In this document: piece by piece, positions 2,881 to 22,364 of the stretch | Layout: each line of letters starts with the position of its first letter | Position numbering within the stretch: position 1 is the stretch's first letter | Assembly: GCA_017456845.1 (NCBI GenBank) | Contig: JAFTIP010000003.1 | Span: 1-52,525 of the forward strand | Origin: Ruminococcus sp. | Lineage (GTDB): Bacteria > Bacillota > Clostridia > Oscillospirales > Acutalibacteraceae | Length of the DNA stretch: 52,525 nucleotides | Reading direction: 5' to 3' | Notes under the pieces: generated by a model | Seen by the model: the letters and a program-made list of their open reading frames with translations, nothing else | Databases searched by the model: none | What the model was told of the DNA's origin: nothing | Made by a program: the position numbers and the translations under genes

Positions 2881-5800
2881 TTAAACATTTTCCCACTGGT
2901 TTGTGGAGTTATTGAAAGCTTTACCGAACTCTGCGTTCAAATCGCTTGTCTTACAGTGGTCGCCGCCTGCGTTGAATACAACGTTGGTGTGTCCCTCAGG
3001 AAGCTTAATCTTGTAAAGTCCGTTTCCTAAGGACTCCATAGCTGTACCGGGCCAAGTTGTGCCGTCACCGCCATTAGGCCATGAGTGACAGTTTACTGTA
3101 CCCCAGCCTGCATTATCCTTAAAGTAGATGCAATCTGCCGATACCTGAACGCCAGAATTATTATTGTGATTATTGTTGTTATGGTTGTTTGAGTACGGCT
3201 TCCAACCGCCGTCCCAAATCATACCTGTACCCTGTACTACGATATCATCTGTTTTGTTGTTGATGTTGCTGCCTTCGTTGAATACAACGTTGTTGTGGCC
3301 TTCGGGAAGCTGGATTCTGAAAATACCGTTACCTAAAGACTCCATAGCTGTACCGGGCCATGTTGTACCATCGCCACCGCTGGGCCAGGAGTGGCAGTTT
3401 ACACTGCTCCATGTGGACTTGAGGTAGATGTAGTTGTCAGGCTGAGGAGGCTCTGTTCCAGGAGGATCTGTAACCACGGGCTGTGTAACTACAGGCTGAG
3501 TAACCACAGGCTGAGTAACCACAGGCTGAGTAACTACAGGCTGTGTAACTACAGGCTGAGTAACTACGGGCTGTGTAACCACAGGCTGTGTAACTACGGG
3601 CTGTGTAATCACAGGCTGAGTAACTACAGGCTTCTCTGTAGGCTCGGTCTGAGGTGCCTGTGTGGGCTCTACGTTAGTACCGGGAACTGTGTACCACTCG
3701 CCTGAATCAAAATTCTTTATAATATTAGCACAGAATTTCTGAATTGCAGTTACATCCTTAACGTTTACCTTGCCGTCAGAATTTACGTCCGAGAGGATAA
3801 GCTGTAAATTATTAAGGGTAGTCATTCTGGCAAGTGCCTTCTGCATTGAAGTTGCATCTTTGATAGAAATTTTTTCGTTTAAGTCTACGTCGCCGTATTT
3901 ATGCTTGTCGCCTGAGTTTGTGTTGGGAGTTGTGGGCTTCTGCACAGGTGTTGTAGCTGTAGGAGCAGGAGGAATAACAATGATATCATCATCCTCTGAA
4001 GGCTCTGTTTTAGGCTGTGTAGGCTCAGGTGTAGTCACAACAGGCTTAGGCTGTGTAGGCTGAGGTGTAGTTACAACAGGCTGAGGCTGTGTAGGCTGAG
4101 GCTGAGTGGGCTGAGGCTGTGTAGGCTGAGTCTGAGGCTGTGTAGGAATAGTCTCAACAGGACCGTCGTAGATAACTGTATGCTCTTTCCACTCTGAATC
4201 AACGCAAATCATTGCATTGCCTGTATACTGTAAACCCTCCTCGGCCGGATACTGATTTTTGCCGTTATCAGAGAAGATAACCTGACAATTCTCATAGCCT
4301 GCGGGTACCTTTAAGTACCAGATGTTGTTGCCGATGCTCTGCATCTGCTCGCCGGGCCACTGAGTAGAGCCCTGACCGTTTTTATAAACGTAGCAGTTTA
4401 CACTGCCCCAATTTGTAGAAGAATTATCATAGTAAATACCGGGCTCTGCGGGAACAGAAAGGTTATACTCATAGGTAACAGCCTCGGAAGTTTCCTTGCC
4501 GTTGGAAGCCTTAACAGAAATCTTTGTCTGTGTGCCTGCGGCTGTACCCTTACCGATTGTAATTTTCTGGCCGTTTGTAAAGGACTGATAAGCACCGCCG
4601 TTTACACTATACTGACCGCTTGTAGCATTTTCAAAGTTAAGTGTAACTGTGAACGTATCGGTTGTGTAGTTTGTGGAGCCGGGAGCAGCGAAAGCAGAGG
4701 GGCCCTCTACTCTGGGAGTTGCGTTAAGTAAAACTGCAATACCCTTATCGCCAACCTTACCTGTCATCTGAGAGCTTGTAACTGTCCATGTAGAACCTGA
4801 AACAAGGTCTTTGTATGTGCCGGGTTTTGTGATACCGCCGCCGTTTGCAACAGATACATCTCTGTTACCGCCGCCGCCTAAAACGATAACTGCACCGCTC
4901 TCACGGTTAACTACTGCACAGCCGTTGCTGCTCTGGAAATAGTCTTTCTCATTTCCGCAAGCGTTCTTGAGCTGGTTAACAGCTGCAATCTCTTTATTTT
5001 TGAATGCTGTGCTACCCTTCTGACCTGACTGGATGTTTTCCTTGTCAGAAGAACCGGGACGGGAGAAATAGAGCGCGTTTGAGCCGTTTCTGGAAGCAAC
5101 TACTGCATAAGCTCTGTCGATAACATTCTGGCTCATTTCATTTGAGAAGCCCCAATCCTTACCGTTGGACCATGTATCGTGGCTTTCACCCCATAAAACA
5201 AGTTTGTTGGGAGCAATGCCGCGGTTTACCCAGTTGCCGTTGGAGCCGGGAACATTGCCGCCTGCAAAGGCATTTCTTACATCGCCGCCGTAAACAGAGT
5301 CTGTTACGCTCATATAGTCTGTGTATTCCTTCATAAGACCTTCGGTGCCGCCGCCGTCAGCAGGACCAACGAGGATTTCACCATAGTGCCACATGCTGTT
5401 GTTCTCTGTAACAGCCTTCCAGAAATTACATCCTTCGGAAGGAAGAGATATATGCTTTGCGGCATCCCAACGGATACCGTCAACGCCGATACCTTCAAGT
5501 TCTTTCATATATTTTGCAACAACCTGCTGAACATAGTTGTGTTCAGAGTTAAGGTCGCGCATACCGATTTCGCCGTGGGTTACCTGATAGCGGTCTGCCC
5601 AGCTGGAAACACCGCCAAGGTTATGCCAGTACTGACTATCCTTAAGGTCATCCTGAACGCGGTTTGTGTCTCCGTTAAGGTGGTTTGCAACTACGTCAAC
5701 AATAACCTTGATGCCGTATTTATCTGCCTCCTGACAAAGGGACTGAAGATCGCCCTTGGAACCGAGAGGGTTATTGCCAACATAAAATCCGTAGGGCTGA

Positions 5801-6111
5801 TAAAGCCAGTACCATGCACCTGAGCCGCCGGGCTGAGCAGGAGAGGTCTGAACAGAAGTAAAGCCTGCTTCTGCAATGCTTTTGAGTTCCGCCTTGATGT
5901 CATTATACTTCCAGTCGAAGCAGTGAAGTATATTACCGTCCTGAATGTTTTTTGCCAAGCCGTAATTTGCACTTGTCTCAGCAAGTTCTGTGTTTGCTGC
6001 AACTTCAACGTACTCTATCTCAGCAGCAGAAGCTGTAAAGCTAAAGCCGCAAAGAACAGAAAGAATAGTGCACACAGCAAGCACAAGGCTTAAAATTCTC
6101 TTCGTTTTCAT
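2881..6111 (-). CDS. secreted multidomain alpha-amylase: GH13, CBM26, dockerin, repeat linker, two CBM26
   Basis: The 1076-residue protein starts with a clear signal peptide ending ...TASAA near residue 30. The GH13 barrel spans about 55-460: region I DVVANH (139-144), nucleophile D216 in GIRWDAAKH, acid/base E245 in HYGEILVG, and D312 in WGESHDT. An immunoglobulin-like stretch and a CBM26-type starch-binding module (about 558-645, NWGSVNCYVY) follow, then TQP-rich linkers. A type I dockerin (about 739-803) has two calcium-loop repeats, GDVDLNEKISIKDA and SDVNSDGKVNVKDV. Next come eleven PVVTQ units (828-882) and two more CBM26 modules (about 895-970 and 993-1076) that are near copies of each other. 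It would hydrolyse starch outside the cell and dock to a cohesin, as in the R. bromii amylosome. GGGAGG precedes the ATG; it is monocistronic, with its own promoter and terminator. Confidence 0.93.
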   Translation of the reverse strand: MKTKRILSLVLAVCTILSVLCGFSFTASAAEIEYVEVAANTELAETSANYGLAKNIQDGNILHCFDWKYNDIKAELKSIAEAGFTSVQTSPAQPGGSGAWYWLYQPYGFYVGNNPLGSKGDLQSLCQEADKYGIKVIVDVVANHLNGDTNRVQDDLKDSQYWHNLGGVSSWADRYQVTHGEIGMRDLNSEHNYVQQVVAKYMKELEGIGVDGIRWDAAKHISLPSEGCNFWKAVTENNSMWHYGEILVGPADGGGTEGLMKEYTDYMSVTDSVYGGDVRNAFAGGNVPGSNGNWVNRGIAPNKLVLWGESHDTWSNGKDWGFSNEMSQNVIDRAYAVVASRNGSNALYFSRPGSSDKENIQSGQKGSTAFKNKEIAAVNQLKNACGNEKDYFQSSNGCAVVNRESGAVIVLGGGGNRDVSVANGGGITKPGTYKDLVSGSTWTVTSSQMTGKVGDKGIAVLLNATPRVEGPSAFAAPGSTNYTTDTFTVTLNFENATSGQYSVNGGAYQSFTNGQKITIGKGTAAGTQTKISVKASNGKETSEAVTYEYNLSVPAEPGIYYDNSSTNWGSVNCYVYKNGQGSTQWPGEQMQSIGNNIWYLKVPAGYENCQVIFSDNGKNQYPAEEGLQYTGNAMICVDSEWKEHTVIYDGPVETIPTQPQTQPTQPQPTQPQPTQPQPVVTTPQPTQPKPVVTTPEPTQPKTEPSEDDDIIVIPPAPTATTPVQKPTTPNTNSGDKHKYGDVDLNEKISIKDATSMQKALARMTTLNNLQLILSDVNSDGKVNVKDVTAIQKFCANIIKNFDSGEWYTVPGTNVEPTQAPQTEPTEKPVVTQPVITQPVVTQPVVTQPVVTQPVVTQPVVTQPVVTQPVVTQPVVTQPVVTDPPGTEPPQPDNYIYLKSTWSSVNCHSWPSGGDGTTWPGTAMESLGNGIFRIQLPEGHNNVVFNEGSNINNKTDDIVVQGTGMIWDGGWKPYSNNHNNNNHNNNSGVQVSADCIYFKDNAGWGTVNCHSWPNGGDGTTWPGTAMESLGNGLYKIKLPEGHTNVVFNAGGDHCKTSDLNAEFGKAFNNSTNQWENV
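3470..3634 (-). repeat. 11 x 15-bp in-frame tandem repeat (PVVTQ linker)
   Basis: Eleven 15-base units of the form gtaac(t/c)ac(a/g)ggctg(a/t) encode PVVTQ on the minus strand. They differ mainly at silent positions, with one PVITQ and one PVVTD. The array joins the dockerin to the C-terminal starch-binding modules and could change length by slippage. Confidence 0.95.
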
Positions 6112-8831: not shown

Positions 8832-10658
8832 TTATTCAACGGTTACGGATTTTGCAAGGTTTCTGGGCTTATCTACGTCATTACCGCGAAGAACAGAAGA
8901 ATAGTAAGCCACAAGCTGTAAGGGAACAATTGCAGACATAGGCATAAGCATTTCCTCACACATAGGAACTCTTATAATCTCGTCGGCAACATCCTCGCCA
9001 ACCTCAAAGCCTTCACCGCAAACAAGAAGCACCTTGGCACCTCTTGCCTTAACCTCTTTGATGTTTGAGATGGTCTTGTCAAAAAGGTCAGACTGAGTAG
9101 CAACTGCAATAACAGGCATACCGTCGGTAATAAGTGAGATTGTGCCGTGCTTTAATTCACCTGCGGCATAACACTCGGAATGAATGTAGGAAATCTCCTT
9201 AAGCTTTAAAGAGCCCTCCATAGAAAGTGCATAGTCAAAGCCTCTGCCGATGTAAAGCAGGCTTTCAGCCTTAATAAGCTCCTTAGCAGCTTCCTTTGAG
9301 ATTGCATCGGTAGATTTAATAATCTCGGCAATTCTTTCGGGCATAGCCATAAGCTCTGCAGTCAGACGCTTGCACTCTGCCTCTGAAATCTTGCCCTTTG
9401 CAAAAGCAAGCTCAAAGGAAAGCATATACATAACAGCAATCTGAACCATATATGCCTTTGTGGATGCAACTGCAATTTCAGGGCCTGCGTGAGTGTAAAC
9501 AAGCATATCAGACTCTCTGGCAATGGAGCTGCCCTTTGCGTTAACAACGCCCATAACCTTTGCACCTAATGCCTTAGAAACTCTTAAAGCCTCCAAAGAG
9601 TCGGCAGTTTCGCCCGACTGAGAAATAATAATAACCAAGTCACCCTCAGAAACCAAGGGAGCACGGTATCTGAATTCAGAAGCAATATCAACCACAACGG
9701 GAACTCTTGCTAATTTTTCAATGGCATATTTACCAACCATACCTGCGTGCATTGCAGTACCGCAGGCTACAATGAACACCTGCTTGATGTCCTTAAGGCT
9801 CTCTACTGTAATAGCACATTCCTCAAGGCTGGGCATACCGTGGAAAACTCTGGGAGCAATGGTTTTGCGTACAGCGTCAGGCTGCTCGTTGATTTCCTTA
9901 AGCATATAATGCTCATAACCGCCCTTTTCAGCAGCATCCATATCCCAGTCAGCTGTCTTAAGCTCTTTTTCAATGGGATTGCCCTTTAAATCGGTAAAGC
10001 ATATGTTACCCTCGGCAATGCGGGCAATCTCGTCGGGCTCTAAAAGGTAATAATCTTTAGTATACTTGATAATAGCAGGAACATCGGAAGCAATAAAGCC
10101 TTCCTCGTCCTTAACGCCGACAATAAGAGGGCTTCCTCTTCTTACGGCATAAATTACATTTGGAATATCCTTAAAAAGAATACCTAAAGCAAATGAACCT
10201 GTAACCTCAGAAAGAGTCTTTTCAATAGCCTTAACAGGGTCGCCTTCGTAATTATAATCTAAAAGCTTTGCCACAACCTCGGTGTCGGTTTCGCTGTAAA
10301 ACTCGCGACCCTCAGCTTCGAGTCGCTCTTTGAGCTCACGGTAATTCTCGATAATACCGTTATGTACCAGAGTTACATATTCACCGCCGATATGGGGGTG
10401 GGAGTTAATGTCAGAGGGCTTACCGTGAGTCGCCCAACGGGTGTGGCCGATACCTGCACTGCCTACAGGGAAAGCCTCTGCCTTCATTTTATTTTCAAGG
10501 TTTTTAAGTCTGCCTTCAGCCTTAATAACGTTTACCTCGCCGTTTTCAAAAACTGCAATACCTGCTGAGTCATAACCGCGGTACTCAAGCTTTGAAAGTG
10601 CGTTTACAAGAACTTCACTGCAATCATTTTTACCTACATATCCGACAATTCCGCACAT
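8832..10658 (-). CDS. glmS: glutamine-fructose-6-phosphate aminotransferase (isomerizing)
   Basis: The 608-residue enzyme makes glucosamine-6-phosphate from fructose-6-phosphate and glutamine, the entry step to UDP-GlcNAc. The N-terminal glutaminase starts MCGIVGYVG (Cys2 is the nucleophile), with LEYRGYDSAG and HTRWATHG. Two SIS sugar-isomerase domains follow (ACGTAMHAG, ISQSGETADS, YIGRGFDYALSMEGSLKLKE), and the usual DKPRNLAKSVTVE end is intact. AAGGAGATG precedes the ATG. Only 36 bases separate it from the upstream dehydratase gene, so there is no space for a glmS ribozyme, and it is probably co-transcribed from the promoter at 12649. That links amino-sugar supply to surface glycan synthesis. 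Confidence 0.97.
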   Translation of the reverse strand: MCGIVGYVGKNDCSEVLVNALSKLEYRGYDSAGIAVFENGEVNVIKAEGRLKNLENKMKAEAFPVGSAGIGHTRWATHGKPSDINSHPHIGGEYVTLVHNGIIENYRELKERLEAEGREFYSETDTEVVAKLLDYNYEGDPVKAIEKTLSEVTGSFALGILFKDIPNVIYAVRRGSPLIVGVKDEEGFIASDVPAIIKYTKDYYLLEPDEIARIAEGNICFTDLKGNPIEKELKTADWDMDAAEKGGYEHYMLKEINEQPDAVRKTIAPRVFHGMPSLEECAITVESLKDIKQVFIVACGTAMHAGMVGKYAIEKLARVPVVVDIASEFRYRAPLVSEGDLVIIISQSGETADSLEALRVSKALGAKVMGVVNAKGSSIARESDMLVYTHAGPEIAVASTKAYMVQIAVMYMLSFELAFAKGKISEAECKRLTAELMAMPERIAEIIKSTDAISKEAAKELIKAESLLYIGRGFDYALSMEGSLKLKEISYIHSECYAAGELKHGTISLITDGMPVIAVATQSDLFDKTISNIKEVKARGAKVLLVCGEGFEVGEDVADEIIRVPMCEEMLMPMSAIVPLQLVAYYSSVLRGNDVDKPRNLAKSVTVE

Positions 10659-13468: not shown

Positions 13469-14383
13469 ATGCAACTTCTTCTGACCGGTGCGTTTCAGTA
13501 TACGGAAAGCCAGATTGCCTCGCTTAAAAACGCAGGTTTTGAAATTACATATGTTCAGAACGAACTGCAGGAACTCAGCAGAGACTGCAGTAAGTTTGAT
13601 GCAGTTGTATGCAACTCTCTTTTTGTATACAATGACGTTGAAAAATTCAAAAACCTTAAGGCTGTTCAGCTTACCAGTGCAGGCTACGACAGAATCCCGG
13701 TAAGCAAGTTTGCACAAAAAGGCATAGCTCTTTTTAATGCCAAAGGAGTTTACAACATTCCTATGGCAGAGTGGGCTGTACTTAAAGCTCTTGAAATTTA
13801 TAAAAACTCCAAATTTTTCTATAAAAATCAGGAGCAAAAGCTTTGGGAGAAAAACCGTAATCTTTTTGAGCTTTACGGCAAAACTGTGCTTATTGTGGGC
13901 GTAGGCAACATTGGTCAAGAATGTGCAAAACGCTTCAAGGCATTCGGAACCAAGGTTTTAGGGGCAGATATTTTCGACAGCAAGTGCGAATTTATAGATG
14001 AATTCTTTTATATGGACAGTCTGCACTCTGCTTTAAAGCTTGCCGATATTATTGTGATGTGCCTGCCTCTTAACGATAAAACCGAACACCTGATAAACAA
14101 AGAAACCCTTAGCTTTTTTAAAGAAAACGCAGTGCTCATAAATATTTCAAGAGGAAAAATCATCAATGAGCCTGACCTTATACAAAAAATTTCTGAAAAC
14201 AAACTTTTGGGAGCAGCCTTGGATGTTTTTGAGGAAGAGCCTCTGAATCCGGCCAATCCACTTTGGAGCAATCCGAAGGTATACGTTACACCTCACAACA
14301 GCTTTGTGTCAGACGCCGTAAGCCAAAGGCTTTTTGAACTCATATACAAAAACCTGACTGAATTTGATTACGGCAAAAATTAA
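13469..14383 (+). CDS. D-isomer-specific 2-hydroxyacid dehydrogenase family protein
   Basis: The 304-residue protein has the two-lobed D-hydroxyacid dehydrogenase fold. The NAD-binding GVGNIG lies at 144-149, and the catalytic residues are R228 (NISRGKIINE), E257 (LDVFEEEP) and H276 (VTPHNS). It would interconvert a 2-oxo acid and a D-2-hydroxy acid with NAD(H). It sits between the initiating transferase and a Ddl ligase, with 17 bases to the next ORF. The VanH family (D-lactate formation) uses the same fold and also sits beside a ligase, but this sequence is short and divergent. A role in making an acid substituent for the glycan is equally possible. Substrate unknown. Confidence 0.85.
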   Translation: MQLLLTGAFQYTESQIASLKNAGFEITYVQNELQELSRDCSKFDAVVCNSLFVYNDVEKFKNLKAVQLTSAGYDRIPVSKFAQKGIALFNAKGVYNIPMAEWAVLKALEIYKNSKFFYKNQEQKLWEKNRNLFELYGKTVLIVGVGNIGQECAKRFKAFGTKVLGADIFDSKCEFIDEFFYMDSLHSALKLADIIVMCLPLNDKTEHLINKETLSFFKENAVLINISRGKIINEPDLIQKISENKLLGAALDVFEEEPLNPANPLWSNPKVYVTPHNSFVSDAVSQRLFELIYKNLTEFDYGKN

Positions 14384-14400
14384 TTTTTGAAAGGTATATT

Positions 14401-15447
14401 ATGGATAAAAAATCAATTCTTATTATATTCGGCGGAAATTCAACCGAACACGAAGTATCCTGTAAATCGGTTATGAATTTCATCAAAAACATCCCCGGCG
14501 AAAAGTATGAAAAACACCTTGTAGGCATAACCAAAAACGGTGAGTGGATGTACTACACCTCCGACACCGCCTTAATCCCGCAATGCAAATGGGCAGAGGA
14601 GCCCTCAAATGTTTCTGCACTGCTTTGCCCCAACAAAGGTCTTGTACTTTTAGACGGCAAAAACTCAGTTATTAAAATTGACGTAATTATTCCCGTGCTT
14701 CACGGCAAAAACGGCGAGGACGGCACAATTCAGGGCCTTTTCGAGCTTTGCTCTATTCCCTACGTCGGTTGCGGTGTTGTAGCATCCTCGGTTTCTATGG
14801 ATAAAGCCTACACAAAAATCATTGTGGACAGCTTAAAGGAAATTCCTCAGGCTGATTTTGTTCTGGTAAGAGAGGGCGACAGCAACAACTACATAGAAAA
14901 AGCCGAAGAAAAACTTGGATACCCAATGTTTGTAAAGCCCTGTAAATCAGGCTCTTCTCAGGGTGTTTCCAAGGCAGAAAACCGCACAGAGCTTATTTCC
15001 GCCGTAAATCTGGCTCTTACCCACGACTCTAAGGTGCTAATTGAAGAAACTATCAAAGGCAGAGAGCTTGAATGTGCTGTTCTTGAAAAAGACGGTGAAA
15101 TCGTTTGTTCCAATGCAGGCGAAGCAGTAGCTGGCGACGTTTTCTACAGCTATGAGGCTAAATATAACAACTCCGACTCAAAAACAGTCCTTAATCCCGA
15201 TATTCCCGAAGGCGTTAACGAAAAAGTAAGAAAATACGCTGAAGCTATTTTCAGAGCTTTGGGCTGTAACGGCCTTTCAAGAGTTGACTTTTTTATGGAA
15301 GAGGACGGCAACGTTGTTTTCAACGAAATCAACACGCTTCCCGGCTTTACCGAAATCAGCATGTATCCCATGATGATGGATGCCGTAGGCTACCCCATAG
15401 AAAAACTTATGGAAGAGCTTATTGAAGGAGCAGGACTCTCAAAATAA
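14401..15447 (+). CDS. ddl: D-alanine--D-alanine ligase family (DdlA type)
   Basis: The 348-residue ATP-grasp enzyme has FGGNSTEHEVS at the N-terminus, PVLHGKNGEDGTIQGLFEL, FVKPCKSGSSQGVSK, the omega-loop segment FYSYEAKY, and NEINTLPGFTEISMYP. These are the usual Ddl signatures. The tyrosines of the omega loop are those of D-Ala-D-Ala ligases; VanA/VanB D-Ala-D-Lac ligases differ there. The expected product is the D-Ala-D-Ala dipeptide for peptidoglycan precursors. It is unusual to find it inside a glycan locus next to a hydroxyacid dehydrogenase, so a second ligase acting on another acceptor cannot be excluded. No vanX-like dipeptidase is present. Confidence 0.9.
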   Translation: MDKKSILIIFGGNSTEHEVSCKSVMNFIKNIPGEKYEKHLVGITKNGEWMYYTSDTALIPQCKWAEEPSNVSALLCPNKGLVLLDGKNSVIKIDVIIPVLHGKNGEDGTIQGLFELCSIPYVGCGVVASSVSMDKAYTKIIVDSLKEIPQADFVLVREGDSNNYIEKAEEKLGYPMFVKPCKSGSSQGVSKAENRTELISAVNLALTHDSKVLIEETIKGRELECAVLEKDGEIVCSNAGEAVAGDVFYSYEAKYNNSDSKTVLNPDIPEGVNEKVRKYAEAIFRALGCNGLSRVDFFMEEDGNVVFNEINTLPGFTEISMYPMMMDAVGYPIEKLMEELIEGAGLSK

Positions 15448-16582: not shown

Positions 16583-17896
16583 ATGTCACTTTACGAAAAA
16601 ATTATTAACCGCGAAGAAAAAATTTCTCTTGTAGGCTTGGGCTACGTTGGCATGCCTATTGCAGTATCTTTCTCAAAAAAGGTAGACGTAATCGGTTTTG
16701 ACCTGAACGCTGCTAAAATTGAGCTTTACAAAAACGGCATTGATCCCACCAAAGAAGTAGGCGACGAGGCTATTAAAGCCTGTACAGTTGACTTTACTGC
16801 CGACCCCGAAAGACTCAAGGAAGCAAAATTCCACATTGTAGCAGTTCCTACTCCCGTAAACGCTGACCATACCCCGGACCTTTCACCTGTTGAAGGTGCC
16901 AGCCGTATTTTAGGCAAACACCTTACAAAAGGCTCTATCGTTGTTTACGAATCCACCGTTTATCCCGGTGTTACCGAAGACATATGTGTTCCTATATTAG
17001 AGGCTGAGTCAGGCCTTAAGTGCGGCGTTGACTTTAAAATCGGCTATTCCCCCGAACGCATTAACCCCGGTGACAAGGTTCACCGCTTGGAAACAATCGT
17101 AAAAATTGTTTCGGGTATGGATGAAGAAACCTTGGACGAGGTTGCAAAGGTTTATGAGCTTGTAGTTGAAGCAGGCGTTCACAGAGCTGAGAGCATCAAG
17201 GTTGCCGAGGCTGCAAAGGTTATTGAGAACAGCCAGCGTGACATTAACATTGCTTTTATGAACGAGCTCTCAATTATCTTCAACAAAATGGGTATCGACA
17301 CAAAATCTGTTCTCGAGGCTGCAGGCACAAAGTGGAACTTCCTCAAGTTCTTCCCCGGTCTTGTTGGCGGTCACTGCATCGGTGTTGACCCTTATTACCT
17401 TACATACAAAGCAGAGCAGCTTGGTTATCACTCTCAGATTATACTTTCAGGCAGAAGAATCAACGACGATATGGGCAAATATGTTGTTGAGTCTTTAGTT
17501 AAAAAGCTTATCTCTGCCGATATCCCCGTTAAAGGTGCAAAGGTGGCAATCTTAGGCTTTACATTTAAAGAGAACTGCCCCGACACAAGAAACACAAGAA
17601 TTATCGACATTGTAAACGAGCTTAAAGAATACGGTATCACTCCCCTTATTGCCGACCCCGAGGCTGACAAAGACGAGGCTAAACATGAGTACGGCATTGA
17701 GTTTGTAGACATGAACACCATTAAAGATATGGATGCAGTTATCCTTGCCGTTGCTCACGAGCAGTTCAAATCCCTCTCTATGAACGATATGGACAAGCTC
17801 TATAACGGAAACCACTCTAAGGTGCTCTTAGACCTTAAGGGCCTCCTTAACCGCAAAGAATACGAAACCGCAGGCTACACCTACTGGAGGCTGTAA
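16583..17896 (+). CDS. UDP-N-acetylhexosamine 6-dehydrogenase (TviB/WbpA-like)
   Basis: This 437-residue UDP-sugar dehydrogenase has an N-terminal [11 protein letters not shown] Rossmann motif, the central [22 protein letters not shown] helix, catalytic C265 in [11 protein letters not shown], and a C-terminal [16 protein letters not shown] domain. Overall features fit the HexNAc-specific TviB/WbpA branch, which oxidises UDP-GlcNAc to UDP-GlcNAcA with two NAD. It is paired with a TviC/WbpP-type epimerase two genes on; together they would give UDP-GalNAcA. AGGAGG precedes the ATG. The gene between the two is an AsnB-like amide synthetase, whose likely acid substrate is the carboxyl group made here. 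Confidence 0.92.
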
Positions 17897-17919: not shown

Positions 17920-19488
17920 ATGTTAAAGCAAATATTAGATAAAGCTCCGATAGTACAACAACATCTGTTCGAAAAAGGTTATCTAATAACCAATGCCGAT
18001 ATTAAAGGTACTGAGAGTTATCCTTTTTACGGCAATTGGAACAACACTACTGTGGGTAATTTTAATTTCTGGGTTTATAATTCGACTAAATTATTCACTT
18101 ATGACTTTAACGGTAATACAGCGTTTCTTATAGGTCATGCATACAATCCTTACACTATGGATTGGAATGAAGAAGAGATACTTCAAAAAATCGCAAAAGC
18201 TTATGAAACAGATGAATATTTTAATGCTATTGACGAGCTAACGGGAATCTTTATTTTGGGAGTTGTTAATGGCTCTTCTATTGAATTCTTACTGGATGCC
18301 TCCGGTATGCAATACGGATGCTATGGCACCATAAACGGCAAGCAGTATATATCAGCTCATATGCTGCTTGTTGGTGATATTTGTAATCTTAAAACCGATA
18401 ATTATGTTGAACGTCTTGTTAACTACAAATGGTACCACTTTATGATGGGCAATTACCTTCCCGGTGACATCACCTGCTATAAAGAAATCAAACGCGTAAT
18501 CCCTAACACATATGTTAAATTAACTAACGGGAACTATTCCGTTACAAGATTTTATCCCAACAAAGAAATACGTATATGCCAAAACGATGAAGAATATGTT
18601 AAGGTAATTTCAGAAGCTGCTAAAATCATGAAAAATACTATGCAGTTAATTCCTATGAAATGGAAGAACCCCTCTATTTCTTTAACAGGCGGTATTGACA
18701 GCAATACTACTTTTGCCGCCGCCAATGGATGCTACCAAAAATACACAACTTTTAGCTATGTGTCTATGCATCGCGAATCTGTTGACGCTGAAAAAGCAAA
18801 AGAAATTAGTGACAGGTTCCATGTTCAGCACAAAGTATATGAAGTCCCTGAAAGCAATAGCGATCTTCTTTATTTTGACATATATAAATCAGTATTCGAC
18901 TATAATCAGGGTATCGGAGTATCTAAAGACAGCGATGCAAGAAAAAAAATCACCCTCATAAACAACAATATCTGTGATGTCGAAGTCAAATCTTGGATTT
19001 CTGAAACTATCCGTGCTTACGCTTATAAATACTTCGGAAGAAAAAAGTTTCCTAAAAACCTAAAAGCAAGATGCTATACTTCGTTATATAAAATATTTTT
19101 AATGAACAGAAAACTTGTTTGGGAAACCGATAAATATTTTGAAGATTACTTTAAAAACACCCAGTTAAAAGAACATCTTTATAACTATGACGAAAGCGAT
19201 TTCTTTGTTTGGGAAATGATGCACGGCGGCAAGTGCGGTCTTAACATTGGCGTGATGAAATCCTGTTTTGACATTACTATCCCATATAATAACAGGAAAT
19301 TACTTGATTTGCTTCTCAGAGTTCCTCTGGAATACCGAATATCTGATAAGCATCATCTTGACCTAAAAAAAGCTATGAATTCGGAGCTTTATGATATGAA
19401 TATTCGTGTTGTTAACCTTAACGAAACATCAACACGCAAGAAACTTGCTAACATTTACTATACTGTTAACACAAAATTACCTTTTTAA
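17920..19488 (+). CDS. asparagine synthetase-like amide-forming protein lacking the N-terminal cysteine
   Basis: The 522-residue protein has the two-domain AsnB layout. Residues 1-210 resemble the class II glutaminase fold (ELTGIFILGVV, FLLDASGMQYGCYG) but begin MLKQIL with no Cys2, so it cannot cleave glutamine in the usual way. The synthetase domain carries the ATP-pyrophosphatase P-loop SLTGGIDS at 254-261, and has family-like helices near DKHHLDLKKAMN. It would adenylate a carboxylate and attack it with ammonia or an amine. Placed between a UDP-HexNAc dehydrogenase and an epimerase, it is a candidate for amidating a HexNAcA residue, as WbpS-like proteins are thought to do. Base composition is clearly more AT-rich than its neighbours, suggesting separate acquisition. 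Confidence 0.75.
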   Translation: MLKQILDKAPIVQQHLFEKGYLITNADIKGTESYPFYGNWNNTTVGNFNFWVYNSTKLFTYDFNGNTAFLIGHAYNPYTMDWNEEEILQKIAKAYETDEYFNAIDELTGIFILGVVNGSSIEFLLDASGMQYGCYGTINGKQYISAHMLLVGDICNLKTDNYVERLVNYKWYHFMMGNYLPGDITCYKEIKRVIPNTYVKLTNGNYSVTRFYPNKEIRICQNDEEYVKVISEAAKIMKNTMQLIPMKWKNPSISLTGGIDSNTTFAAANGCYQKYTTFSYVSMHRESVDAEKAKEISDRFHVQHKVYEVPESNSDLLYFDIYKSVFDYNQGIGVSKDSDARKKITLINNNICDVEVKSWISETIRAYAYKYFGRKKFPKNLKARCYTSLYKIFLMNRKLVWETDKYFEDYFKNTQLKEHLYNYDESDFFVWEMMHGGKCGLNIGVMKSCFDITIPYNNRKLLDLLLRVPLEYRISDKHHLDLKKAMNSELYDMNIRVVNLNETSTRKKLANIYYTVNTKLPF

Positions 19489-19503
19489 TAGGAGTGGCAT
19501 AAA

Positions 19504-20481
19504 ATGGGTTATAAGCACCTTGAATTTCCTAAGAACTCTATATTTTTAGTTACGGGCGGAGCAGGTTTTATTGGCTCTAACCTATGCGAGGCTATACTGG
19601 ATATGGGTTACACAGTCCGCTGTCTTGATAATCTTTCTACAGGTAAAAAGTCCAATATGGACGGTTTTATCAATAACCCCAACTTTACATTTATCGAAGG
19701 CGATATCCGTGACCTTGACACCTGTATGACTGCATGCAAAGGCGTTGATTACGTTCTTAATCAGGCGGCTTGGGGCTCTGTTCCCCGTTCTATCGAAATG
19801 CCTCTTCTTTATGAAGACATCAACATTGGCGGTACCCTTAATATGATGGAAGCTGCACGTCAGCAGGGCGTTAAGAAGTTTGTTTATGCTTCTTCCTCCT
19901 CTGTTTACGGCGATGAACCTAACCTCCCCAAAAAGGAAGGCAGGGAAGGAAACCTCCTCTCCCCCTATGCTCTTACAAAAAGAGTCGACGAAGAATACGG
20001 CAAACTTTACACAAAGCTCTACGGCCTCGATACTTACGGAATGCGTTACTTCAACGTATTCGGCAGACGTCAGGACCCCGACGGTGCCTATGCCGCTGTT
20101 ATTCCCAAATTCATCAAACAGCTCTTAAACGGCGAAACCCCCACAATCAACGGCGACGGTAAGCAGTCCCGTGACTTTACATACATTGAAAACGTAATTG
20201 AAGCAAACCTTAAGGCATGCCTTGCACCTTCAAGTGCCGCAGGCGAAGCTTTCAATGTTGCCTTCGGTGGCAGAGAATATCTTATTGACATTTACTACGG
20301 CCTTACAAAAGCTTTGGACAAAGAGGATATTGAGCCTAACTTCGGTCCCGACAGAAAGGGCGATATCAAGCATTCCAATGCCGATATCTCAAAAGCTAAA
20401 GAGCTTTTAGGCTACAACCCCGATTATAGCTTTAAAGACGGCATTAAGCTTGCCATAGATTGGTATAAGGAGAACTTATAA
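19504..20481 (+). CDS. UDP-GlcNAc/GlcNAcA 4-epimerase (WbpP/TviC-like)
   Basis: The 325-residue extended SDR has VTGGAGFIGSN (16-26), LDNLSTGKKSN, GDIRDL, the active site S132/Y155/K159 (SSSVYGD and SPYALTK), and the WbpP-typical QAAWGSVPRSIE and FNVFGRRQDPDGAYAAVIPKF stretches. WbpP/TviC enzymes invert C4 of UDP-GlcNAc or UDP-GlcNAcA. With the dehydrogenase at 16583 this gives UDP-GalNAcA, a precursor of Vi-like and O-antigen-like acidic polymers. The GC content and codon use match the dehydrogenase, not the AT-rich genes on each side, so the pair is probably the older core of the locus. Confidence 0.92.
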   Translation: MGYKHLEFPKNSIFLVTGGAGFIGSNLCEAILDMGYTVRCLDNLSTGKKSNMDGFINNPNFTFIEGDIRDLDTCMTACKGVDYVLNQAAWGSVPRSIEMPLLYEDINIGGTLNMMEAARQQGVKKFVYASSSSVYGDEPNLPKKEGREGNLLSPYALTKRVDEEYGKLYTKLYGLDTYGMRYFNVFGRRQDPDGAYAAVIPKFIKQLLNGETPTINGDGKQSRDFTYIENVIEANLKACLAPSSAAGEAFNVAFGGREYLIDIYYGLTKALDKEDIEPNFGPDRKGDIKHSNADISKAKELLGYNPDYSFKDGIKLAIDWYKENL

Positions 20482-20503
20482 ACAAATTTAGGAGGTTTTC
20501 TAT

Positions 20504-21538
20504 ATGAAAATCGCAATACATCAGAACGAAAAAATGTTTAAACACTCTAGTCAAATAGTAGACGATTGTATCAAACAGTGTGTGAAAAGAAACATTAAAT
20601 ATAAAATCGTAAACTGCTACGATACTAATATATTAGAAACCCTTAGGGAATTCGATGCAGTTATATGGACCATTCAAAATTACGTAAAAGCAGATATGCT
20701 TGAGGCACGGAGTATACTTAACTCCGCACAAAAAATAGGACTTAGGGTTTTTCCCGACTTTAACACATCCTGGCATTTTGATGATAAAATTGCAGAAATG
20801 TATTTGCTTCAAGCTATAAATGCTCCTATACCTAAAAGTTGGGTGTTCTATTTTAAGGATGAATGCATAGAATGGCTTAAAAACGAAGCTAAATATCCAA
20901 TCGTAGCAAAACTTAGATGCGGTTCTGGTGCAAACAATGTAAAGCTCCTAAAAAACTTTAAAGAAGCCAAAAAATATACCGACATAATGTTCACGAAAGG
21001 CTTTAGTCCTGCCCCTAGTGCCATTTACAAAGCTTACTCAAAAGCACAGTCCTCAAAGAACTTAAAGGTAATAATTAATAGAATTAAGAAAATCCCCGAT
21101 TTCCTTAACACTCTTTCAAATGCAAAAAAACTTAGCCGAGAATCTGATTATTGTTATTTTCAGGAGTTTATTGAAAACAACGGTTATGATATTAAAATAG
21201 TTGTTATAAATGATAAACTGATTCCTCTGTGCAGAAATATACGAAAAGGCGACTGGCGTGCATCAGGCGGCGGCGATTGCTACACAGATATCTCTATGGT
21301 TACCGAGCAAATTCGAAAATCAGCTTTCGACACTTTTGATAAGTGCGGTTTCCAGTGTATTGGTTTTGACTATGTTGTGGATAAAAACACAAACGAAGGA
21401 AAAATAATTGAGATGTGTTATGGATTTGATTTTCAAGCTTTATCTGATGTTGGCGGATATTTTGATCGACACGGCAATTGGCATAAAGATAGCACATTAA
21501 GTATTGTAAATGAAATCTTTGAGACACTGGTCAAATAA
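20504..21538 (+). CDS. ATP-grasp ligase of unknown acceptor
   Basis: The 344-residue protein looks like a RimK/Ddl-type ATP-grasp enzyme. A pre-ATP-grasp lobe contains VFPDFNTSWHFDDKIAEMYL (about 85-104), then IPKSWVFYF, the ATP-binding lysine and glycine loop YPIVAKLRCGSGANNVKLL, FQEFIENNGYDIKIVVINDK, and a C-terminal metal-site segment GFDYVVDKNTNEGKIIEM. Such enzymes make an acyl-phosphate and couple it to an amine. In a glycan locus it is a candidate for attaching an amino acid to a uronic acid or amino sugar; no substrate can be named. It is AT-rich like the AsnB-like gene. AGGAGG precedes the ATG and the 3' end overlaps the next gene by 29 bases. Confidence 0.75.
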   Translation: MKIAIHQNEKMFKHSSQIVDDCIKQCVKRNIKYKIVNCYDTNILETLREFDAVIWTIQNYVKADMLEARSILNSAQKIGLRVFPDFNTSWHFDDKIAEMYLLQAINAPIPKSWVFYFKDECIEWLKNEAKYPIVAKLRCGSGANNVKLLKNFKEAKKYTDIMFTKGFSPAPSAIYKAYSKAQSSKNLKVIINRIKKIPDFLNTLSNAKKLSRESDYCYFQEFIENNGYDIKIVVINDKLIPLCRNIRKGDWRASGGGDCYTDISMVTEQIRKSAFDTFDKCGFQCIGFDYVVDKNTNEGKIIEMCYGFDFQALSDVGGYFDRHGNWHKDSTLSIVNEIFETLVK

Positions 21539-22364
21539 CCACAGGCAAGCCATCTTCGTATCGATAATTATTTTTATTATTGTTTTATCTTTCCTGATAT
21601 GCTTACTGGTCAGTTATTATGCTTTGTACCTGACAGAAAATAAAGCATATGTTAAAATAATCAACAATACAAATTTAATTATCCTATCTGACCTTCACGA
21701 TTCTTCTTTCGGGAAAAATAACGCAAAGCTTATTGATAAGGTGAGACAATGTGAACCGGATGTTATTTTTACGGTTGGCGATATGGTAAGCGAATACAAT
21801 AAGGACTACTCTTACCTTTCGCCCCTTTATCAATCTTTAGCTGAGATTGCACCTGTTTACTGCTCTTTAGGTAATCACGAGCTTTCTCATCCTGAAAGCG
21901 AAAAGATAAAAGGGATTTTAAAAGAACACGCAACTCTTCTTGATAACGAATATACCGAAACCAATATTAACGGAACCGATGTACGTATCGGCGGGCTTAT
22001 GGGGTATCACCCCGACAACGTTGAGCTTAATGAGTTTGTAAGGGATTTTGCCGATACCGAAAAATTTACCCTTCTGCTGAGCCATTGCCCTGAATACTAC
22101 GTCTGGGGCGTTGACGAGGTAAAAATTGATTTAATGATCTCAGGGCATACTCACGGCGGTCAGGTGATTGTTCCTTTCAAGGGCGGTCTTTATGCTCCCG
22201 AGCAAGGTTACTTTCCTTACTACGACTACGGTGTTTTTTATGAAGAAAATACCACTCTGGTTATTACCCGTGGCTTAGGCACCTCAAAGCAGAAGGTTCC
22301 ACGATTTAATAACCCCCCTGAAATTCTTTGTCTTACCCTTGAGCCTGAGGTGCAAAATGAATAA
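21510..22364 (+). CDS. membrane-anchored metallophosphoesterase (YkuE-like)
   Basis: A single N-terminal membrane helix (about 14-40) is followed by a calcineurin-type phosphoesterase domain with all metal motifs: LSDLHDSS, VGDMVSEY, SLGNHELSH, LLSHCPEYY and SGHTHGGQVIVPF. The 284-residue length and topology match the YkuE/YaeI group, which acts at or outside the membrane. The start lies inside the end of the ATP-grasp gene (29-base overlap), and its own end overlaps the CYTH gene by eight bases, so the three are translationally coupled. In this context it could hydrolyse a phosphorylated lipid carrier or nucleotide sugar; that is inference. Confidence 0.88.
   Translation: MKSLRHWSNNHRQAIFVSIIIFIIVLSFLICLLVSYYALYLTENKAYVKIINNTNLIILSDLHDSSFGKNNAKLIDKVRQCEPDVIFTVGDMVSEYNKDYSYLSPLYQSLAEIAPVYCSLGNHELSHPESEKIKGILKEHATLLDNEYTETNINGTDVRIGGLMGYHPDNVELNEFVRDFADTEKFTLLLSHCPEYYVWGVDEVKIDLMISGHTHGGQVIVPFKGGLYAPEQGYFPYYDYGVFYEENTTLVITRGLGTSKQKVPRFNNPPEILCLTLEPEVQNE

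What the first reader, a model, noticed from the sequence alone, without database searches (positions are those of the whole stretch)
17920..21538. Glycan locus with two amide-bond enzymes around a UDP-HexNAcA pathway
An AsnB-like protein without Cys2 and an ATP-grasp ligase flank the WbpP-type epimerase, right after the TviB-type dehydrogenase. The carboxyl group made by the dehydrogenase is the obvious target: one enzyme could amidate it with free ammonia or an amine, and the other could join an amino acid. Both genes are more AT-rich than the dehydrogenase and epimerase, which suggests they were added later as a decorating module. I know of no described system with exactly this set.
Basis: partly seen in the sequence, partly recalled or inferred. 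Interest (0 to 1): 0.72.

Follow-up and report, generated by a model that had tools for sequence, protein, structure and literature searches.

The report
Two swappable amide-linking glycan modules
A Clostridia-type bacterium's surface-sugar operon carries two different amide-bond enzymes; comparison across genomes suggests that one decorates a sugar acid while the other belongs to a hydroxy-acid-making module tied to the first step of surface-sugar assembly.

Summary
The AT-rich composition, missing Cys2 and intact ATP-pyrophosphatase loop are confirmed.

The RimK-like ATP-grasp (2 of 81 loci) fills the slot behind the epimerase that related loci often give to a TupA-like ATP-grasp. A TupA-like enzyme is known to amidate a uronic-acid carboxylate, so the uronate is its likely target.

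The AsnB-like protein tracks something else. Of 46 genomes examined that hold its relatives, 44 encode a divergent HpcH/HpaI aldolase-like protein (30 of 32 where none lies nearby) and 16 a TviB-type dehydrogenase. Of 60 sugar-assembly loci, 50 have a D-2-hydroxyacid dehydrogenase, 15 uronate genes. In this genome the aldolase-like domain is fused to a sugar-phosphate transferase and a glycosyltransferase on another contig. Elsewhere the D-2-hydroxyacid dehydrogenase is replaced by an L-type dehydrogenase or an aminotransferase, as expected if the aldolase makes a 2-keto acid.

Best reading: the AsnB-like ligase activates that 2-hydroxy acid (or a residue bearing it) for amide formation; the ATP-grasp amidates the uronate.

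The parts
8832..10658 (-). GlmS, glucosamine-6-phosphate synthase (name from sequence, no family scan run); marks the locus in related genomes
   Evidence: one copy at E <= 1e-60 in this genome, 68-74% identical where found in genus mates; beside the same operon in L034, L041, L104
10695..12602 (-). PglF-like nucleotide-sugar 4,6-dehydratase (name from sequence; no family scan run)
   Evidence: 70-71% identical in L034, L041, L104
12762..13427 (+). initiating sugar-phosphate (phosphoglycosyl) transferase
   Evidence: PF02397 222.5 bits; present in 44 of 81 AsnB-like loci and 22 of 23 aldolase-anchored loci
13469..14383 (+). D-2-hydroxyacid dehydrogenase, frequent partner of the AsnB-like family
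   Evidence: PF02826 178 bits; R228, E257, H276 invariant in 20 sequences; in 52 of 81 loci, within 100 bp of an AsnB-like gene in 30 of those 52
14401..15447 (+). D-alanine--D-alanine ligase type ATP-grasp; the only clear Ddl found in this genome
   Evidence: NF002528 396 bits, over its cut-off of 262; the van ligase models listed are below theirs; the two other PF07478 hits in the genome score 52 and 45 bits, in frames of 1085 and 437 aa
15466..16569 (+). GT4 glycosyltransferase (GT4a), the form that goes with the uronate genes
   Evidence: PF00534; in 14 of 15 loci with the dehydrogenase and 2 of 41 without
16583..17896 (+). TviB/WbpO-type UDP-HexNAc 6-dehydrogenase
   Evidence: 495 bits to TviB, 395 bits to TIGR03026
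17920..19488 (+). AsnB-like PP-loop ligase without the N-terminal glutaminase nucleophile
   Evidence: S254 G257 G258 D260 S261 K342 E355 K357 S358 W359 E362 R365 E432 R459 R506 kept in 88 of 88
19504..20481 (+). TviC/WbpP-type UDP-HexNAcA 4-epimerase
   Evidence: 311.9 bits to TviC
20504..21538 (+). RimK-like ATP-grasp ligase, in the slot often held by a TupA-like ATP-grasp
   Evidence: PF08443 25.9 bits; one close relative, L104, 72% identical, same slot
21510..22364 (+). metallophosphoesterase, overlaps the ATP-grasp gene by 29 bp; probably not part of the module
   Evidence: PF00149; overlap, and no match within the fetched stretch in L034 and L104

Best explanation
The operon combines two modules that are assorted independently among Clostridial surface-glycan loci. 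Module A is dehydrogenase, epimerase, GT4a and an ATP-grasp: it makes UDP-HexNAcA (GlcNAcA to GalNAcA), adds it as an early residue, and the ATP-grasp joins an amine or amino acid to its C6 carboxyl. Module B is initiating sugar-phosphate transferase, HpcH/HpaI aldolase-like protein (in this genome on contig C24, fused to a transferase and a GT4), D-2-hydroxyacid dehydrogenase and AsnB-like ligase: the aldolase-like enzyme makes a 2-keto acid from pyruvate, the dehydrogenase reduces it to a D-2-hydroxy acid, and the AsnB-like enzyme adenylates that carboxyl and forms an amide with an amine, most likely an amino sugar of the first residue or an amino acid. Shown here: gene content, co-occurrence, gene fusion, conserved residues. 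Inferred: every reaction, its order, and the identity of acid and amine.
For: Aldolase-like profile A3 strongly matched (E < 1e-70) in 44 of 46 AsnB-like genomes, of which 30 of 32 where no aldolase gene lies near the AsnB-like gene, against 7 of 197 in the order (E < 1e-100); all 4 of those 197 with a strong AsnB-like match have it (p = 6e-7). TviB-type dehydrogenase in 16 of the same 46. Among 26 aldolase-positive genomes the AsnB-like gene (E < 1e-100) goes with the D-2-hydroxyacid dehydrogenase subfamily (8 of 12 against 1 of 14, p = 0.003 with E < 1e-100; 8 of 13 against 1 of 13, p = 0.011 with E <= 1e-70), and is in 0 of 8 whose aldolase locus has the L-type dehydrogenase or aminotransferase instead. 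These three non-homologous 2-keto-acid enzymes never share a locus (7, 5 and 3 of 23, none in 8). Transferase-GT4-aldolase fusion in this genome and in L133, GT4-aldolase in L134 and L135. The TviB-type dehydrogenase is independent of the 2-hydroxyacid dehydrogenase (11 of 15 against 29 of 41, p = 1.0) but linked to TupA/RimK ATP-grasps (9 of 15 against 1 of 41). TupA-like Cj1438C amidates the GlcA carboxylate (PMC11800379, passages). Lysine 2,3-aminomutase adjoins AsnB-like genes in 3 loci.
Against: No activity or product is known. AsnB-like genes of several subfamilies lie between dehydrogenase and epimerase in 9 loci, a placement that would also fit action on the uronate. WbpS, also AsnB-type, is needed for a uronamide (PMC7468200, passages). 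G335 has the AsnB-like gene without the 2-hydroxyacid dehydrogenase; G251 and G253 lack a strong aldolase match. Four genomes have the dehydrogenase without a strong AsnB-like match, and 8 of 23 aldolase loci have none of the three 2-keto-acid enzymes nearby. 29 of 81 AsnB-like loci show no 2-hydroxyacid dehydrogenase in the fetched stretch. In this genome aldolase and dehydrogenase are on different contigs. The histidine that I recall as a catalytic base of HpaI is not conserved in the aldolase family. The ATP-grasp has E-M-C where RimK, as I recall, has E-x-N; its slot argument rests on two examples, and 6 of 15 epimerase loci have no such ATP-grasp behind the epimerase.
Confidence: 0.55

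Rival explanations
1. One reading: the AsnB-like protein is a diverged WbpS that turns UDP-GalNAcA into its uronamide with free ammonia, and the ATP-grasp acts on another carboxyl.
For: WbpO-WbpP-WbpS is the accepted route to GalNAcAN (PMC6025236, passages), and a P. gingivalis wbpS deletion loses the uronamide (PMC7468200, passages). The AsnB-like gene lies between dehydrogenase and epimerase here and in 8 other loci.
Against: 15 of 60 glycan loci and 16 of 46 genomes with the AsnB-like family have the uronate pathway, and relatives 64-71% identical sit in loci without it. WbpS-family model TIGR03108 gives 20.4 bits against a cut-off of 816.9. No Cys2.
Confidence: 0.2
2. The AsnB-like proteins are amino-acid ligases of varied specificity (for example beta-lysine) that load amines on whichever carboxyl the locus offers: the hydroxy acid in most loci, the uronate in some. 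Different subfamilies in one slot would be serotype-like switching.
For: Two AsnB-like frames in 8 of 81 loci, at least 6 label changes for the uronate slot on the tree, lysine 2,3-aminomutase within 100 bp of an AsnB-like gene in 3 of 3 loci that have it, the ATPgrasp_ST cluster within 100 bp in 13 of 15 (one member checked against Pfam).
Against: Does not by itself explain the near-obligate aldolase partner (44 of 46) or the link to the D-type dehydrogenase.
Confidence: 0.2
3. 2-hydroxyacid dehydrogenase plus Ddl form a VanH-VanA-like pair for D-Ala-D-Lac, and the glycan genes are passengers.
For: The two genes adjoin (13469-15447), and Ddl resembles Van ligases in general.
Against: The Ddl passes D-Ala-D-Ala subfamily cut-offs and none of the listed Van cut-offs; it is the only clear Ddl found in the genome; in most relatives the dehydrogenase pairs with aldolase and AsnB-like genes, with this Ddl in 4 of 81 loci. 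vanX and regulators were not sought.
Confidence: 0.03

Closest known systems
WbpO-WbpP-WbpS (P. aeruginosa O6; H. pullorum WbpO/WbpS; P. gingivalis WbpS)
   Same: TviB/WbpO dehydrogenase, WbpP epimerase and an AsnB-type enzyme in one glycan pathway
   Different: WbpS is placed in the eps_aminotran_1 family (PMC7468200, passages); the window protein scores 20.4 bits there against a cut-off of 816.9, lacks Cys2, and its family is mostly found without uronate genes
Campylobacter jejuni Cj1438 C-terminal domain, TupA-like ATP-grasp
   Same: ATP-grasp in a capsule locus that amidates a uronic acid C6 carboxylate; the same slot in seven related loci holds TupA-like proteins
   Different: The window ATP-grasp is RimK-like by Pfam, not TupA-like; amine unknown
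Neisseria PglB2 (sugar-phosphate transferase with ATP-grasp, glyceramido-acetamido trideoxyhexose)
   Same: A hydroxy-acid amide made on the first, lipid-linked sugar, with the making enzyme tied to the initiating transferase
   Different: There an ATP-grasp is joined to the transferase; here an aldolase-like domain is fused or adjoining, and the ligase candidate is AsnB-like
V. cholerae O1 tetronate-acylated perosamine
   Same: A 2-hydroxy acid amide-linked to a 4-amino sugar
   Different: Tetronate synthesis is assigned to VC0248-VC0252 (PMC3441752, passages); those genes were not compared here, and no aldolase/AsnB-like pair is mentioned in the passages read
Beta-lactam synthetase / carbapenam synthetase (recalled, no call)
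   Same: AsnB fold without glutaminase Cys, acyl-adenylate then amide
   Different: Secondary metabolism, intramolecular ring closure

Membership tests
WbpS / eps_aminotran_1 (TIGR03108) | score over the curated cut-off of 816.9 bits | tested here: not met
   20.4 bits
WbpS / AsnB glutamine-dependent amidotransferases | N-terminal Cys2 nucleophile | tested here: not met
   M1-L2; 0 of 85 family members with Met-Cys in the first 70 residues
Asn_synthase PP-loop ligase superfamily (PF00733) | gathering score and SxxGGxDS pyrophosphate loop | tested here: met
   28.5 bits against 21; loop residues in 88 of 88
TupA-like ATP-grasp (PF14305) | Pfam match | tested here: not met
   P0007 matches only PF08443 at E <= 0.001, while slot occupants in L028, L045, L100 match PF14305 at 171-206 bits
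RimK-like ATP-grasp (PF08443) | gathering score | tested here: met
   25.9 against 21
RimK-like ATP-grasp (PF08443) | E-x-N metal ligands near the C terminus (recalled) | tested here: inconclusive
   E-M-C in both known members
D-isomer 2-hydroxyacid dehydrogenase (PF02826/PF00389) | Pfam matches and Arg/Glu/His catalytic set (recalled) | tested here: met
   178 and 49.8 bits; R228, E257, H276 invariant in 20
HpcH/HpaI aldolase (PF03328), partner protein | gathering score; Arg and metal-binding Glu/Asp (positions recalled) | tested here: met
   L015 protein 43.6 against 25; R69, E127, D153 invariant in 16
HpaI / GarL equivalogs | curated equivalog cut-offs; catalytic His (recalled) | tested here: not met
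   HpaI 19.2 of 368.8 and GarL 20.2 of 406.75 bits; the His position is variable
WbpS-type function | uronamide formation | not testable with these tools
   needs assay

The most novel reading that the evidence does not exclude
A new kind of glycan initiation unit: an HpaI-like aldolase, working with (and sometimes fused to) the initiating sugar-phosphate transferase and the second glycosyltransferase, adds pyruvate to a sugar or short aldehyde to make a 2-keto acid, which is reduced by a D- or L-dehydrogenase or transaminated, and whose carboxyl is then amidated by a glutaminase-less AsnB-like ligase. This would be an undescribed family of carboxylated, amide-decorated first residues in gut Clostridia and beyond.
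Probability: 0.25. Interest if true: 0.8.

Novelty: new variant of a known kind. Interest (0 to 1): 0.58.

Why it matters
Amide decoration of surface sugars is known from pathogens. Here the comparison separates two amide enzymes that a single genome suggests belong together. It points to a widespread module in gut Clostridia (also Bacteroidota, Lentisphaerota and others by record title) in which an aldolase-like protein of unknown product is tied, even by gene fusion, to the first step of glycan assembly. If the product is a hydroxy-acid amide, it would be a new class of microbial surface structure and a clear target for mass spectrometry.

Tried and rejected
Contamination of the contig: considered because the Ddl of genus mates is only 31-38% identical to P0002. 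Not the simplest view: GlmS on the same contig is the only copy found and 68-74% identical in the genus mates that have a match (11 of 14), and the partner locus on C24 resembles those of L028, L034, L041 and L104, whose two loci lie on one contig (judged by equal contig lengths).

Close WbpS membership: rejected on family score and Cys2. VanHA-like resistance pair: rejected as above. PDB homologues by sequence: for the AsnB-like family only the PP-loop region, best QueC at 5e-5; for the ATP-grasp weak, best 3vpb at 0.016 (labelled putative acetylornithine deacetylase), then RimK- and LysX-type chains at 0.1 to 1. Rfam and tRNA scans of the window: nothing. The glutamine synthetase beside the AsnB-like gene in L014/L050 (one genome) was not pursued.

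None of the listed titles or abstract starts describes an aldolase, 2-hydroxyacid dehydrogenase and AsnB-like cassette. Only open-licence papers are held; a 2021 survey of sugar-phosphate transferase fusions that I looked for by DOI is not held. Papers were seen as search listings, and seven as passages (PMC6025236, PMC7468200, PMC11800379, PMC11130364, PMC2824669, PMC10942596, PMC3441752); none was read whole. For the H. pullorum wbpS mutant the passages of PMC6025236 give HexNAcAN in the results and HexNAcA in the discussion, so I do not lean on it.

Sampling caveats: the 78 contig loci were found through the AsnB-like profile, so ratios inside them say nothing about AsnB-like frequency; flanks are at most 10 kb and often cut by contig ends. 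One search received 47 of the 78 loci (46 genomes): 33 of the 35 without a nearby aldolase gene (L099 and L102 left out) and 14 with one, which are positive by construction. One search used the same 47. LDH2 and IlvE replacements were noticed by eye in two loci and then sought with one seed each. Some of the 23 aldolase loci (at least L140, L189, L190) come from genomes that also gave AsnB-like loci. Family labels in the loci rest on profiles built from the loci themselves; Pfam was run on single members only.


Full report
WHAT IS THERE. The window is one whole contig (C26, 52,525 bases) of a 1.79-Mb, 62-contig genome, 93% complete. The operon runs on the + strand from 12762 to at least 21538: initiating sugar-phosphate transferase, D-2-hydroxyacid dehydrogenase, Ddl, GT4 glycosyltransferase, TviB-type dehydrogenase, AsnB-like protein, TviC/WbpP-type epimerase, RimK-like ATP-grasp; gaps within it are 13-41 bp. 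A divergent PglF-like dehydratase and GlmS lie upstream. The AsnB-like protein keeps the PP-loop, and its family shares further residues found in 88 of 88 members (K342, E355, K357, S358, W359, E362, R365, E432, R459, R506). I infer an active ATP-pyrophosphatase-type ligase that uses ammonia or, more likely, an amine directly.

HOW THE RELATIVES WERE GATHERED. P0005 was sought in 197 genomes of its order: 10 had a match, itself included, 4 of them strong (E < 1e-80). P0007 had, apart from itself, one weak match (E 6e-4) in the same 197. A profile of four AsnB-like proteins then found 78 loci in named genomes, mostly Clostridia by title (116 stretches passed, the best 80 were kept). With the window and two more loci this gives 81 loci, labelled with profiles built from them.

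TWO MODULES. Across the 81 loci the 2-hydroxyacid dehydrogenase is in 52, an HpcH/HpaI aldolase-like protein in 45, the initiating transferase in 44, the TviB-type dehydrogenase in 16 and the epimerase in 15. Of the 60 loci with any of three assembly enzymes (GT4a, GT4b, initiating transferase), 50 have the 2-hydroxyacid dehydrogenase, 44 the aldolase and 15 a uronate gene; 21 loci have none of the three. The usual order is transferase, aldolase, 2-hydroxyacid dehydrogenase, AsnB-like, glycosyltransferase: aldolase within 150 bp of the transferase in 37 of 40 loci with both, and of the 2-hydroxyacid dehydrogenase in 37 of 43. Among 56 loci with at least 4 kb on each side, the TviB-type dehydrogenase goes with the epimerase (13 of 15 against 0 of 41), GT4a (14 of 15 against 2 of 41) and a TupA- or RimK-type ATP-grasp (9 of 15 against 1 of 41, p = 6e-6), but is indifferent to the 2-hydroxyacid dehydrogenase (11 of 15 against 29 of 41, p = 1.0) and to the third ATP-grasp type, ATPgrasp_ST (2 of 15 against 11 of 41, p = 0.48).

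THE ATP-GRASP. In 9 of 15 epimerase loci the next gene is an ATP-grasp: TupA-like in seven, RimK-like in the window and L104; in 6 there is none. The occupants of L028, L045 and L100 match PF14305 at 171-206 bits. A TupA-like ATP-grasp domain, Cj1438C, forms the amide on the C6 carboxylate of glucuronic acid in C. jejuni (PMC11800379, passages). By position the window's ATP-grasp is therefore the best candidate for the uronate-amidating enzyme. Cautions: two examples only, and an unusual E-M-C where I recall E-x-N in RimK.

THE ASNB-LIKE PROTEIN. Its relatives at 64-71% identity in L030, L033, L035, L032 and L039 lie behind the 2-hydroxyacid dehydrogenase, or behind a second AsnB-like gene, in loci with aldolase and without uronate genes; a sixth, L031 (67%), lies in a stretch with neither. 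At genome level the aldolase profile A3 matches strongly (E < 1e-70) in 44 of 46 genomes that gave AsnB-like loci; G251 has only a weak match and G253 none. Fourteen of these are positive by construction because the gene lies near; of the other 32, 30 are positive. In the order as a whole A3 matches at E < 1e-100 in 7 of 197, and all four genomes with a strong AsnB-like gene are among them (p = 6e-7). Six further genomes of the order have only weaker AsnB-like matches and no aldolase match; they look like other families. The TviB-type dehydrogenase was found in 16 of the same 46 (E <= 1e-60). Against my reading, the slot between dehydrogenase and epimerase is filled by AsnB-like proteins in 9 loci, and on a tree of 88 proteins that label needs at least 6 changes on well-supported branches, so different subfamilies have come to the slot. 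That fits swapping of specificities, and it leaves a role on the uronate open.

WHAT THE ALDOLASE SAYS. In this genome the aldolase-like domain is on contig C24, in one 907-aa frame: transferase (49-243), GT4 (253-626), aldolase-like (639-904). L133 has the same fusion, L134 and L135 have GT4-aldolase, L136 a single domain; L042 and L074 have an N-terminal part that none of six profiles matched. A DegT/PseC-type aminotransferase gene lies about 1 kb away, divergent, as would fit a 4-amino sugar. In 23 aldolase-anchored loci (19, 4) the transferase is present in 22, and the 2-keto-acid enzyme is one of three unrelated kinds, never two: D-2-hydroxyacid dehydrogenase 7, malate/L-lactate-type dehydrogenase (PF02615) 5, class IV aminotransferase 3, none nearby 8 (seeds identified). 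That is what one expects if the aldolase-like protein makes a 2-keto acid. Its presumed pyruvate- and metal-binding Arg, Glu and Asp (positions recalled) are invariant in 16 sequences, while the histidine recalled as a catalytic base of HpaI is not. Among 26 aldolase-positive genomes the AsnB-like gene is in 8 of 12 with the D-2-hydroxyacid dehydrogenase subfamily (E < 1e-100) and in 1 of 14 without (p = 0.003). Counting also G281, whose partial matches reach only 1e-75, it is 8 of 13 against 1 of 13 (p = 0.011). It is in 0 of the 8 with the alternative enzymes at the locus. Weak AsnB-like matches in G145 and G269 (E 1e-9, 3e-4) were not counted. The AsnB-like ligase thus tends to follow the D-2-hydroxy acid, though four genomes have the dehydrogenase without it.

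MECHANISM. Shown: gene sets, associations, fusions, retained residues. Inferred: the aldolase-like enzyme makes a 2-keto acid; P0001 reduces it; P0005 adenylates the carboxyl and makes an amide with an amino sugar of the first residue or an amino acid; P0004 and P0006 make UDP-GalNAcA; P0003 transfers it; P0007 amidates it. Precedents seen in passages: PglB2, a sugar-phosphate transferase with an ATP-grasp domain, for a glyceramido first sugar (PMC11130364); tetronate on perosamine in V. cholerae O1 (PMC3441752). Lysine 2,3-aminomutase next to AsnB-like genes in three loci suggests beta-lysine as the amine in one clade.

NOVELTY. Amide decoration of glycans by AsnB-type and ATP-grasp enzymes is known (PMC6025236, PMC7468200, PMC11800379, passages). 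The association of an aldolase-like protein and interchangeable 2-keto-acid enzymes with the initiating transferase, and of a glutaminase-less AsnB-like family with its D-form, was not found in the ten searches run, which covered open-licence papers only. I rate it a new variant of a known kind, with a bolder reading held open.

Noticed in passing
window 14401-15447; G000 against genus mates: The only clear Ddl of this genome sits inside the glycan operon and is of another type than the Ddl of its genus mates (31-38% identity at best); L034, L041 and L104 carry it in the same locus at 75-77% identity. It looks like a replacement of a housekeeping gene carried with the locus.
   Followed up: partly
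window 2881-6111 (-): Alpha-amylase with three starch-binding stretches (CBM26) and a type I dockerin, reminiscent of the amylosome of Ruminococcus bromii (recalled).
   Followed up: no
L075, L077, L092: Lysine 2,3-aminomutase (L077: 608 bits, cut-off 525) directly beside an AsnB-like gene; L077 and L092 are glycan loci: candidate beta-lysine-decorated polysaccharide.
   Followed up: partly
L132:5754-8477, L133:8351-11035: Triple fusion of sugar-phosphate transferase, GT4 and HpcH/HpaI-like aldolase.
   Followed up: partly
L143, L174, L184: Aldolase loci with a class IV aminotransferase, two of them (L143, L174) also with a diaminopimelate-decarboxylase-like PLP enzyme, in place of the dehydrogenase: perhaps an amino acid or amine built for the glycan.
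   Followed up: partly
L071:12591-14183, L095:12177-13706: Mur-ligase-like proteins (PF08245/PF02875, shown for L071) in the same kind of glycan locus, a further possible amide-bond enzyme.
   Followed up: no
L040, L044, L066: AsnB-like genes (tandem in L040 and L044) followed by a conserved 285-aa protein, without the glycan genes profiled here nearby.
   Followed up: no
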